Source: Cordilura impudica | Taxonomy: Eukaryota; Arthropoda; Insecta; Diptera; Scathophagidae | Reading direction: 5' to 3' | Assembly (NCBI GenBank): GCA_963682025.1 | Contig: OY821519.1 | Coordinates: 164,061,086 to 164,125,085 of the forward strand | Length of the DNA stretch: 64,000 nt | Made by a program: the position numbers and the translations under genes | The notes under the pieces: generated by a model | What the model saw: only the letters and a program-made list of their open reading frames with translations | Told to the model about the DNA's origin: nothing | Databases searched by the model: none | Shown here: piece after piece, positions 15,087-33,194 of the stretch | Numbering within the stretch: position 1 is the stretch's first letter | Layout: the number at the start of each line of letters is the position of its first letter

Positions 15087-15305
15087 TGTTTACGCGCAGA
15101 TGAACGAAAAGACCTATAATCAGCTTAACGAAACGCTCTTTGGTGCTTTTTTCGTAGCCTTTGAGGTTTATTGTTTTAAGCGACATGATCAAACTGTTGT
15201 ATGCCCCGTTTTATAACGTTTGAGAAAAAATTCTAATTCCGTTTTTTTATTTCATTTTCTTCGAACATAATTTTATTGGAAAATTATTTTACGAGGAAAA
15301 AAACA
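15087..15305 (+). repeat. BEL-A 5' LTR (219 bp)
   Basis: Matches the 3' LTR along its whole length apart from scattered substitutions and a net 42-bp gap near 15208, where the 3' copy has additional sequence containing cttaaggtacg. It runs TG...CA. Divergence by substitution is low, about ten differences by eye. Confidence 0.9.
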
Positions 15306-28953: not shown

Positions 28954-28958
28954 GGGCG

Positions 28959-28997
28959 CACTGTGGTCAATATTTTGAGATAGCGGCCAAAACTCCT
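28959..28997 (+). repeat. Transib left terminal inverted repeat, RSS-like
   Basis: Heptamer CACTGTG, then 23 bases (gtcaatatt...gcggcc), then aaaactcct. It matches the right end at 31 of the first 37 positions. The heptamer-23-nonamer layout is that of a 23-RSS. Confidence 0.9.
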
Positions 28998-29509
28998 TTT
29001 GGTTTTTGTTCTCCGATTTTAAAGTTATTAGACTCATATGAAAGTAGACAGTAGTAAACCTCGGGAGCCAAAAAGTTAGAACTCTATTTCAACTATTTCA
29101 CTGAGAACAGGGTGGTCCAAAATGGGCTTTTTCAGAATTTAGAAAATTTATGATATTTTTAGTTAATTTTTAAAGTTTAAATGATCATAACTTTTTTGTT
29201 TTTCAAGATTTTTGGACGAAATAAATTTTGTGTTGTAACTTAACTTATTTCCTATTACTGGTAAAAAAAATTGAAGTTCTACTATTTTCAGAACAATTTA
29301 AATTTTTTTTTTAAAAAAGGTCAAATTTCTCGGAAATTTCCTACTTCATAGAGCACAACTCCTGTGAGTCAAGCTGAGTCAAAACACAAATTTACTATTT
29401 TGTAGTCCTAACTCTCCCCTACATTCCTATATATACATGTCCATGCATCGGGACTGCACTTTTTGAGCTACAGCAATGTTTCTGACCCAAGGTAAGATAT
29501 TCGGTACAA

Positions 29510-29746
29510 ATGCACGTCATATTTTTTGAGAAGTTATTTGTATGTGAAAGTGGCTATTATGCATATATTTTCATGAAATTTTGGACAAGAGTTCTTATTG
29601 ACCCAAAAAATAATTCTGTTGAAATTAGGAGAAGTTGGCCCATATTTGGACCTAGTCCACATAGAAGGGTGTATCAAAATTTTGACAAAAATGACAATAG
29701 AACTCTCAAATTATGTGGTATCTGGCAATTCATTTGGAAAAGGTAA
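29510..29746 (+). CDS. unrecognised 78-codon ORF in the Transib 5' region
   Basis: Starts at ATG 29510 and includes RSWPIFGPSPHRRVYQNFD; its end overlaps the first 168-bp unit and stops at tag-like sequence just after a splice-donor-like ggtaaaaaag. It could be an upstream exon of the transposase gene or chance. No family is recognised. The rest of 28998-29509 is AT-rich without a feature. Confidence 0.3.
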   Translation: MHVIFFEKLFVCESGYYAYIFMKFWTRVLIDPKNNSVEIRRSWPIFGPSPHRRVYQNFDKNDNRTLKLCGIWQFIWKR

Positions 29747-30185
29747 AAAAGATTTTATTGCCATCTAATATTACACAACTTAAATACGTGAAAATTGCAA
29801 ATAAATTTAAAACCAATGGAAATAACTGGTAAAACCAAGTACCTTTTATATTATTGCCAGTACCTGTTAACTCTCAAATTATGTGGTATCTAGCAATTCA
29901 TTTGGAAAAGGTAAAAAAGATTTTATTGCCATCTAATATTACACAACTTAAATACGTGAAAATTGCAAATAAATTTAAAACCAATGGAAATAACTGGTAA
30001 AACCAAGTACCTTTTATATTATTGCCAGTACCTGTTAACTCTCAAATTATGTGGTATCTAGCAATTCATTTGGAAAAGGTAAAAAAGATTTTATTGCCAT
30101 CTAATATTACACAACTTAAATACGTGAAAATTGCAAATAAATTTAAAACCAATGGAAATAACTGGTAAAACCAACTACCTGTTAT
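29701..30185 (+). repeat. three 168-bp tandem units upstream of the Transib transposase
   Basis: Units starting aactctcaaattatgtggta lie at 29701, 29869 and 30037, a period of exactly 168 bp; the third is shortened at about 30185. Copies differ at only a few positions. Each has ttggaaaaggtaaaaaagat, a splice-donor-like sequence. Confidence 0.93.
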
Positions 30186-30283
30186 ATTATGTTTCAAAGA
30201 GGTAAAAAAGATCATGTTGAAACTTCGAGCAATAGTATATTAATCCATGCATTCATTTTTTTTTCTTCATTATTGTTTAAACA

Positions 30284-32316
30284 ATGGCTAAATTCAGTTA
30301 TAGTGTTCTATCTGATATATATTTTGAACGGAAAGATGAAAACGACATTATTTTACATATAATGAATAATCCATTCTTCAAAATATGCGACAAACAAGAA
30401 CTTAAAATTCATAACTTAAAAATAAAAAACTTTTTAAATACTTTAAGAAAACGGTGCAATCAATGTTCCAGAAACAAGAAATTGTTTTACTCACGCAACC
30501 AAGAATGGCTAAGAAATAAAGTTATTTTTAAAAAGCCATCAGTAACTACCACGGAAACTGGAAAAGGTGGTCGACCAGCAAAGCCAATTGATAATTGTAG
30601 TGAAAGATCACGAAGACGCAAGCTTAAACATATCAATGAAGAAGTTTCTTGTAGCATCATAAAGGATTCATTTCTGCTTCAAATTCAACCATCGAAAACT
30701 AAAAAGGGTAAAATTGCTATCATTGAAAAAATAGTGGAAACAAGCCCCAGACGCACAAAAAGGATTTTAGAAAGTATGCCGACACCAACTGAAGAAAATA
30801 AATTTACTCCAGAAGAAGCATTTGCACTTTTTTTGGATTTGAAAATGACTAAAAACCAATATACAGAATTGCGGAAGCGAACCAATGAAAAAAATTGTGG
30901 AATTTTTCCATCATATCGAGATATAGTTTCTGCCAAAAAAGATTGCTTACCTTCACCAACTGCTATTAGTGTAACTTCAAGTTCAGCAGAAATAAAATTG
31001 CAGGATCTTCTTGAACACACTGCAGAACGATTATTAAAGACATTTGATGCTGACTATTTAAAGAAGTTTAAAAATTGCAGCATGACTTTAATTTCTAAAT
31101 GGGGATGTGATGGGTCCTCTGGCCAGAAACAATACAAACAATGTAATGCGGAAAATTCATCAGATGCCAATTTATTCATGATTTCTTTCGTTCCATAACG
31201 TTTAACAAAAACTTATATTGGTTCAGAGCCGTCAACTAGTAGAGCTGCAGAGATAGATGTATGGAAGAATGAAATTCCCTCGTCAACAAAATTTTGTAGA
31301 CCAATAAAGTTTGCTTACAAAAAGGAGACTCAAGATGTCATAGATGAAGAAGTTCGAAAAATAAATGATTAAATTAAAGAACTTCAACCAGTAACATTTA
31401 AATTTGATGACCAAGACATTGAAGTAAATTTTAAAATGTGTCTCACAATGATTGATGGAAAAGTTGCACAAGCTTTAACCAAAACAAAGTCATCGTCAAG
31501 CTGCACCATATGCCAAAAAACATCAAGTCAATTGAGCCAACCACCAACACAAGACGATAGTTTTAATGAAGCATATGAATTTGGAATGTCACCTCTTCAT
31601 GCTAGAATTCGTTTTATGGAGGATATTCTTAAATTGGGATACGATTTGGAATTTGGCCCGTTAGGCGAAACAGTGAGAAACAACAAAGAAAATTTGGAAA
31701 AAAGAAAGCAAAAAAAAAAGATATTCAAGAAAAATACCGTGAGATAGGCCTTATAATTGACCAGCCAAAGCAAGGAGAAGGAAATTCTAATGATGGAAAC
31801 ACAGCAAGGAGATTTTTTTCCGATACAGAAACTGCAGCTTCTATAACTGGAGTAGATTATGATTTAATACGACGATTCCAAATCATATTACAAGTTATAG
31901 CATGTAGCAAAAAGATAGATGCAAAAAAATTTGGTCAGTATGCTAATGAGACAGCAACCCTTTATAACCAAAAATATTCTTGGAGACATATGCCAACCAC
32001 AGTTCACAAAATTTTGTTCCATGGGGAACAAATAATTCAGCACAATATGCTTCCAATTGGAGATCTCTCAGAAGAAGCCCAAGAAAAAAGGAACAAAGAC
32101 TACAGATTCTTTCGCGAGCACAATACAAGAAAAATTTCCAGATATTGTACTAATGAAGATCTTATTAATATTTTGTTGTGCACATCAGACCCATATATGT
32201 CCAGTATTCGACAAAAATGGAAATCAACCTCATTAGAGTTAGATGAAGAAGCTAAACAACTACTGCAAAATGAAAATCAAAGCTATTTGGAAGAAATTTT
32301 TACTAATATTGTTTAA
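30284..32316 (+). pseudogene. Transib transposase (RAG1-like DDE recombinase)
   Basis: Frame from ATG 30284 runs 304 codons to a stop at 31196-31198, then continues in the same frame through a second stop near 31369-31371 to about 31710. In the A-rich run there the frame shifts, and the rest lies in the frame ending at 32316. Catalytic candidates: Asp276 in KWGCDGSSG (codon 31109-31111), Asp in TMIDGKVAQAL (31454-31456) and Glu in LSEEAQEKRNKDY (32083-32085), aligned by pattern with RAG1 D600, D708 and E962. CRPIKFAYKKET, CTICQ and SPLHARIRFMED are further Transib motifs. It cuts at the CAC of the ends and joins them to a GC-rich target. Confidence 0.9.
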
Positions 32317-32887
32317 TTAATACTAGTTTAAAGATTATAATTTGTTTCTAATTTTAGTATAAATTTTTATTAATACATTTAAATAAAATATATGTGCACT
32401 TTAAATCAATAGTAAAAGTTTACTTAAAATTTTATCGATGTTGTGTTCTGTATATAATATATCCAAATGGTATTGATATTGTTGGGAATTTCAGTGTTAT
32501 TTTTCAGTTTAATCCTCACAAGAATTAGCTTTCTTCCAAAAAAAACCAACCTTTGGCCCCTATGAATATTGAGAGACTAAATAAATGTCAGGGGCCAAAT
32601 GTTGGCATTTTCTGACCAAAATTAAGTTTAGGAATAATAAATAAGTATTGGTTGTAAAATACGATTGAAGAAAATAAGAAATTATAAAAAAAATACCTAT
32701 TTAAAATGTCAAAATATTCAACTTTTACATGGAAAGTCAACAAAAAATTAAAATGCATTTTTAGCTCCAAATTACTTACGTTCCTATCAGTCGATTTTTA
32801 CGTTTGAATACGCAAATTGAAGCTTAAAGTCCCTCCTATTGAACAAAACAAATCGCGTAAAAAAATACCAATCCGGTCAAAAGTTAT
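32317..32887 (+). other. Transib 3' non-coding region
   Basis: AT-rich sequence between the transposase stop (32314-32316) and the right inverted repeat. AATAAA-like signals occur near 32381-32388 (aaataaaat), suitable for transcript ending. No open frame of interest. Confidence 0.5.
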
Positions 32888-32925
32888 AGAGTTTTGACCG
32901 CTATCTCGCGAAATTGACCACTGTG
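32888..32925 (-). repeat. Transib right terminal inverted repeat, RSS-like
   Basis: Read on the minus strand: CACAGTG, the exact consensus RSS heptamer, then 23 bases (gtcaatttc...gcggtc), then aaaactcta. Ends against the gggcg duplication at 32926-32930. Confidence 0.9.
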
Positions 32926-32933
32926 GGGCGGGA

Positions 32934-33194
32934 TGTTTACGCGCAGATGAACGAAAAGACCTATGATCAGTTTAACGAACGCTCTTTGGTGCTTTTTTCG
33001 TAGCCTTTGAGGTTTATTGTTTTAAGCGACATGATCATACTGTTGTGTACCCCGCTTAAGGTACGTTGTACAAATCCACCCCCAAGAAAAAATATATTTA
33101 TAACGTTTGAGAAAAAATTCTAATTCCGTTTTTTTTATTTCATTTTCTTCGCACATAATTTTATTGGAAAATTATTTTACGAGGAAAAGGAACA
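32934..33194 (+). repeat. BEL-A 3' LTR (261 bp)
   Basis: Begins TGTTTACGCG three bases after the right Transib target copy and ends GGAACA before the aatag duplication at 33195-33199. It is 42 bp longer than the 5' LTR owing to one indel. caagggggcggga, the BEL-A purine tract before this LTR, is reconstructed in order from both sides of Transib. Confidence 0.92.

What the first reader, a model, noticed from the sequence alone, without database searches (positions are those of the whole stretch)
28959..32925. Transib ends built like a V(D)J recombination signal with a 23-bp spacer
Both ends show heptamer (CACTGTG left; CACAGTG right, the exact consensus RSS heptamer), exactly 23 bases, then AAAACTC. 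The 23-base spacer itself is conserved between ends at its inner part (gagatagcgg). This is the layout proposed for the ancestry of RAG signals from Transib. The two ends differ at heptamer position 4 (T or A), which may be natural variation or decay. Heptamer, spacer length and A-rich nonamer are read directly; the link to RAG is family knowledge.
Basis: partly seen in the sequence, partly recalled or inferred. Interest (0 to 1): 0.8.

Follow-up and report, generated by a model that had tools for sequence, protein, structure and literature searches.

The report
Transib transposon with RAG-signal-like ends
This is one copy of a young, abundant Transib jumping gene whose ends resemble the DNA signals cut by the antibody-gene recombinase; the resemblance was already known for Transibs, but unrelated ends in this genome share it, and copies often sit end to end with other Transibs across one shared 5-base target site.

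Summary
Window 28959-32925 is a complete Transib with a perfect GGGCG target-site duplication (TSD). Its ends are CACTGTG-23-AAAACTC (left) and CACAGTG-23-AAAACTC (right). In the copies sampled, the difference at heptamer position 4 is end-specific, so it is not decay.

The RSS-like reading holds beyond this family. Of 53 Transib ends (19 clusters), the best match to the RSS nonamer falls 21-25 bp from the heptamer far more often than in shuffles (8.25 of 19; shuffle mean 1.77, maximum 6.25 in 1,000). The transposase is HzTransib-like with DDE residues, plus an N-terminal GRP motif that aligns with the RAG1 nonamer-binding arm; HzTransib structures lack it. Both ends are 23-type, so there is no 12/23 asymmetry. 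Layout, 5-bp TSD and GRP motif are in print: a new member of a known kind.

Less expected: 11 of 51 copies abut another heptamer across one shared 5-bp site. Genome-wide, 35 of 41 nearby left-end matches lie at exactly 5 bp.

A frameshift at an A10 run in this copy first looked family-wide, but run length varies around an in-frame A11. The window copy is dead.

The parts
28954..28958 (.). left target-site duplication GGGCG
   Evidence: identical to 32926-32930
28959..28965 (+). left heptamer CACTGTG
   Evidence: CACTGTG in 33 of 36 readable left ends
28966..28988 (+). left 23-bp spacer
   Evidence: same length in 36 of 36 readable left ends
28989..28995 (+). left A-rich box AAAACTC (nonamer-like)
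   Evidence: 34 of 36
29702..30197 (+). three copies of a ~168-bp tandem repeat before the reading region; end approximate
   Evidence: motif starts at 29702, 29870 and 30038; other copies have different lengths here
30284..32316 (+). Transib transposase reading region, broken in this copy: stops after residues 304 and 362 of the first frame, then a frame change at the A10 run
   Evidence: matches HzTransib 6pqn on both sides of the break
30569..30577 (+). GRP motif codons (residues 96-98), aligned with the RAG1 GGRPR nonamer-binding arm
31109..31111 (+). first catalytic Asp (WGCDG)
   Evidence: aligned with HzTransib; D126 named in PMC6941560
31454..31456 (+). second catalytic Asp (MIDGK)
   Evidence: aligned with HzTransib; D225 in PMC6941560
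31710..31719 (+). A10 homopolymer where this copy changes frame
32083..32085 (+). catalytic Glu (SEEAQEKRN)
   Evidence: aligned with HzTransib; E436 in PMC6941560
32889..32895 (-). right A-rich box AAAACTC
   Evidence: 35 of 36
32896..32918 (-). right 23-bp spacer
32919..32925 (-). right heptamer CACAGTG
   Evidence: CACAGTG in 34 of 36 right ends in register
32926..32930 (.). right target-site duplication GGGCG

Best explanation
A cut-and-paste Transib DNA transposon, one of roughly 800 close copies in a 1.49-Gb genome (probably an insect, judged from the named relatives; host not identified). Its transposase would bind each end at two points: the RAG1-like catalytic core at the CACWGTG heptamer, and an N-terminal domain with a GRP arm, equivalent to the RAG1 nonamer-binding domain, at the A-rich box about 23 bp further in. 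It would then cut at the outer edge of the heptamer and insert into CGNCG sites, duplicating 5 bp. Shown here: end sequences, spacing, TSDs, conservation across copies and across unrelated ends, DDE residues, fold match, GRP alignment. Inferred from HzTransib and RAG: the cleavage chemistry, and that the GRP domain reads the A-box. The window copy cannot make intact transposase; copies with an in-frame A-run exist.
Against: The GRP stretch has only i-Evalue 2.4 on its own, and structural alignments through it have large rmsd (about 12-16 A). 8 of 19 end clusters have no best nonamer match within spacer 21-25, and the mean match also rises at spacers 8 and 29 (3.53 and 3.58, against 4.11 at 22). 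A paper passage says Hztransib ends have little or no nonamer similarity (PMC8289069). The window's own C-terminal part is below the Pfam RAG1 cut-off in the copy tested (19.2 against 25 bits). No biochemical test was possible.
Confidence: 0.85

Rival explanations
1. The ends are just a 37-bp terminal inverted repeat conserved by descent; heptamer/spacer/nonamer is a pattern read into it.
For: Within this family the inner half of the spacer is as conserved between ends as the heptamer. The best RSS-nonamer placement in this family is spacer 21, not 23.
Against: Across 19 clusters with different spacer sequences the nonamer match concentrates at spacer 21-25: 8.25 of 19 against shuffle mean 1.77, maximum 6.25 in 1,000. 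One unrelated end is CACAGTG-23-ACAAAAATA (L110, 7 of 9); another, L091, is CACAGTG-21-TCAAAAACC (8 of 9).
Confidence: 0.12
2. Target re-use (about the end-to-end chaining): copies abut other Transib ends simply because CGNCG sites that served once as targets are good targets and each insertion doubles them; the neighbouring end itself is not recognised.
For: TSDs are CGNCG in 24 of 29 perfect cases. 12,355 places read CACTGTGCGNCG, so Transib TSDs are a real share of all CGNCG sites. Re-use of TSDs is known for P elements and others (recalled).
Against: CACTGTG-flanked sites are about 0.9% of an estimated 1.4 million CGNCG sites, yet 11 of 51 copies have a heptamer exactly 5 bp outside. Counting both orders of insertion this is roughly an eight-fold excess (estimate; CACAGTG-flanked sites were not counted).
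Confidence: 0.5
3. The transposase is made by programmed frameshifting at the A10 run (A AAA AAG).
For: The best-40 set is dominated by A10 (35 of 37 readable), with long open frames on either side; P0001 from a public assembly ends its open frame at the same place.
Against: In the first 99 A-run places listed genome-wide, A11 (in frame) is commonest, 37, then A10, 33, with a spread of 8-14. The first sample was ranked by likeness to a query that carries A10. No downstream RNA structure (z 0.55). Relatives P0003-P0006 and P0008 are single 673-679-aa frames, as is P0007.
Confidence: 0.03

Closest known systems
HzTransib (Hztransib, Helicoverpa zea), Transib superfamily
   Same: Homologous transposase, same DDE residues by alignment, TIRs, 5-bp TSD (PMC1852546, passages)
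   Different: HzTransib structures align only from model residue ~171 on, so they lack the N-terminal GRP domain; its TIRs are described as having little or no nonamer similarity (PMC8289069, passages); its TSD was GCTCG, here CGNCG
Drosophila hopper / transib2
   Same: Transib with 5-bp TSD (PMC3276498, passages)
   Different: Target motif CCANTGG there, CGNCG here
Transib families with symmetric RSS-like TIRs
   Same: Symmetric ends with heptamer, spacer of about 20-22 bp and nonamer-like box, described in PMC8355894 (passages and section 6)
Vertebrate RAG1/RAG2 and the 23-RSS
   Same: Heptamer CACAGTG (right end), ~23-bp spacer, A-rich box; RAG1-like fold
   Different: No RAG2-like frame found in the element; both ends 23-type, no 12-type partner; the box matches at most 6 of 9 nonamer positions in this family

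Membership tests
Transib superfamily | Transposase homologous to a known Transib transposase | tested here: met
Transib superfamily | DDE catalytic residues at the Transib positions | tested here: met
   D 31109, D 31454, E 32083 align with HzTransib; residue names from PMC6941560, matched through a numbering offset of 17 that I inferred
Transib superfamily | Terminal inverted repeats starting with a CAC heptamer | tested here: met
Transib superfamily | 5-bp target-site duplication | tested here: met
   perfect 5-bp TSD in 29 of 40 copies, this one included
RAG 23-RSS (layout) | Heptamer CACAGTG | tested here: met
   Right end exact; left end CACTGTG. RAG shows little or no specificity at position 4 in the assays of PMC9723617 (passages; it also cites earlier reports of an A preference)
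RAG 23-RSS (layout) | Nonamer-like box after ~23 bp | tested here: met
   A-box at 23 in this family; excess at 21-25 across clusters. Match to ACAAAAACC only partial in this family
RAG 23-RSS (layout) | Variable spacer sequence of nearly fixed length | tested here: met
   Spacer differs between clusters; conserved within the family
12/23 pairing | One 12-type and one 23-type end | tested here: not met
   Both ends 23 bp in this family
RAG / RAGL transposon | A RAG2-like gene beside the RAG1-like gene | tested here: not met
   Inside 28959-32925 no ORF over 78 aa lies outside the transposase region; among the longest ORFs over 150 aa in L001-L008 none lies in the element outside it. No RAG2 profile search was run
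RAG-like cleavage | Nick-hairpin cleavage at the heptamer | not testable with these tools
   needs biochemistry

The most novel reading that the evidence does not exclude
Transib transposases in this genome use existing Transib ends as preferred targets: a CGNCG lying directly against a heptamer is chosen above other CGNCG sites, perhaps because heptamer plus flank resembles the substrate that the enzyme already holds. Elements of different families are thereby chained end to end through single shared 5-bp sites, and could move as composites.
Probability: 0.3. Interest if true: 0.65.

Novelty: new member of a known kind. Interest (0 to 1): 0.5.

Why it matters
The proposed origin of V(D)J signals from Transib ends rests on published comparisons of individual families. 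One genome with 12,355 heptamer-CGNCG junctions and many unrelated ends lets the heptamer / ~23 bp / A-box layout be tested statistically. It also pairs that box with a GRP domain at the place of the RAG1 nonamer-binding arm, which HzTransib structures lack, so a direct test of nonamer reading by a Transib becomes possible. The end-to-end chaining across one shared TSD bears on how RAG-family enzymes choose targets.

Tried and rejected
Programmed -1 frameshift at A10: taken up, rejected.

A10 as a separate subfamily: no majority substitution separates the left parts of 36 best copies and 11 others, and the right 1.2 kb gives a star-like tree with A11 copies scattered; not supported.

Assembly artefact in homopolymers: A/T runs of 11 and 12 occur beside runs of 10 in the window (5, 6 and 2 runs of 10, 11 and 12), so longer runs are called; biological slippage and sequencing noise were not separated.

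12/23 asymmetry: not found in this family.

Composite movement as the cause of chaining: all four CGNCG variants occur between the abutting ends (33 of 35 matches at 5 bp have CGNCG) and the neighbour ends are diverse, which speaks for separate insertions; not excluded for single pairs such as L007 and L060, which share neighbour end and TSD.

Families absent from the fold list are not excluded by it.

Not obtained because the genome search stayed unreachable: right-end adjacency count, exact number of left ends, family-B end count, host identity (PF00115).

Print check: listings 45, 63, 85 and 121 and the passages read showed no report of Transib TSD sharing; for most papers only titles and abstract starts were seen, so this does not prove absence. 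Kapitonov and Jurka 2005 is not held and is known here through other papers.

Full report
WHAT IS THERE. Window 28959-32925 is a complete Transib DNA transposon. The ends agree at 31 of the first 37 positions and little beyond. The window lies in contig C3 of a 1.49-Gb genome; the named relatives of the transposase are insect proteins, so an insect host is likely, but it was not identified.

COPIES. A whole-genome search scored 40 of 3,669 candidate places, listing matches at 94-100% identity. All 40 were read. Left ends are readable in 36 of 40 and right ends in register in 36 of 40. CACTGTG is found in 33 of 36 left ends and CACAGTG in 34 of 36 right ends; the left spacer is 23 bp in 36 of 36; AAAACTC in 34 of 36 and 35 of 36; one further copy, L035, keeps its right heptamer with a shortened spacer. 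Another 30 ends in genome order, chosen by the inner box, gave CACTGTG in 14 of 15 left and CACAGTG in 13 of 15 right (three lie on copies already counted). So position 4 goes with the end. RAG shows little specificity at that position in the assays of PMC9723617, although that paper cites earlier reports of an A preference (passages). The inner box occurs 1,679 times, control 0, which suggests roughly 800 copies. Forty-eight right-hand parts differ on average by 1.6% pairwise and 0.8% from their majority, with a star-like tree: a young burst.

ACROSS FAMILIES. The string CACTGTGCGNCG occurs 12,355 times, its reversed control 28 times, so this genome holds very many Transib junctions. Twenty such ends, taken in listed order with known family-A ends left out, show A-rich boxes mostly 22-25 bp from the heptamer. 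With 31 neighbour ends and the two ends of this element, 53 ends fall into 19 clusters. The best match to the RSS nonamer lies at spacer 21-25 with weight 8.25 of 19; shuffles of 2-base blocks gave a mean of 1.77 and a maximum of 6.25 in 1,000. The mean match is highest at spacers 22 and 23 (4.11, 3.84). Against this: 8 of 19 clusters have no best match in that range; lesser rises stand at spacers 8 and 29 (3.53, 3.58); a few neighbour ends look truncated or nested (L038, L002); the heptamer was part of the selection; and the clusters are not fully independent.

SHARED TARGET SITES. In 11 of 51 copies (9 of the 40 best, some with one unreadable end; 2 of 11 others in genome order) another CACNGTG heptamer lies exactly 5 bp outside the element. 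Genome-wide, 41 matches (40 distinct left ends) have CACTGTG within 30 bp; 35 are at exactly 5 bp, and 33 of those have CGNCG between. CACAGTG adds 2, both at 5 bp. At least one neighbour is certainly a Transib of another family: in L002 the sequence beyond the shared site encodes, on the other strand and in broken frames, a transposase 80-85% identical to this one. The others are judged by their ends. CGNCG occurs 74 times in 77,273 bp outside the element, about 1.4 million genome-wide, so CACTGTG-flanked sites are about 0.9% of them. Allowing for both orders of insertion, I expect 2-3% of copies with a neighbour and see 22%, roughly eight-fold more. This is an estimate on a small sample; target quality could explain part or all of it. 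Right ends were not counted genome-wide because the tool was unreachable.

A FALSE TRAIL. The window copy changes frame at an A10 run (31710-31719). In the best-40 set 35 of 37 readable copies had length 10, which looked like a programmed frameshift. Loci in genome order and a pattern search (744 matches, control 1) showed otherwise: of 99 listed A-runs, 37 have A11 (in frame), 33 A10, and lengths run from 8 to 14. There is no downstream structure. The first sample was ranked by likeness to its A10 query. The window copy also has stops after residues 304 and 362 and is dead.

WHAT IS KNOWN. Transib ends resembling RSSs, including symmetric 20-22-bp spacers and a few 12/23 types, are described in PMC8355894 (passages and section 6). 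Five-bp TSDs are known (PMC1852546, PMC7204232, PMC3276498; passages). The element is therefore a new member of a known kind. I saw no report of Transib TSD sharing in the listings.

Noticed in passing
window 32934-33188 and 15087-15300: The Transib sits just upstream of a stretch that matches 15087-15300 (95-98%), perhaps the two LTRs of a BEL/Pao-like retroelement (the naming is my reading of the ORFs, not a family search); the insertion lies in a purine-rich stretch.
   Followed up: partly
window 29702-30197: A ~168-bp tandem repeat, three copies here; shorter element lengths suggest fewer copies in most other elements.
   Followed up: partly
P0121: A Eumeta japonica (bagworm moth) protein is 86% identical over 89% of the C-terminal query, which may point to horizontal transfer; host unknown, not tested.
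   Followed up: no
L017; G000:C4:32452150; G000:C1:206016033: Some neighbouring heptamers lie 8 bp away, two of the three across overlapping CGNCGNCG sites.
   Followed up: no
L038: Left of the shared site a 12-bp stretch lies between two heptamers, like a nested remnant or excision footprint.
   Followed up: no
L074, L007, L020 and the window element's ends: A second subterminal block (ATAACTTTTGA at right-type ends; CCGATTTTAAAGTTAT-like at left-type ends) recurs inside several families, reading the same way on the top strand at both ends.
   Followed up: no
model m1f80cc40939a residues 1-80: A confidently predicted N-terminal domain before the GRP motif (block pLDDT 90-98); its fold was barely tested.
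   Followed up: no
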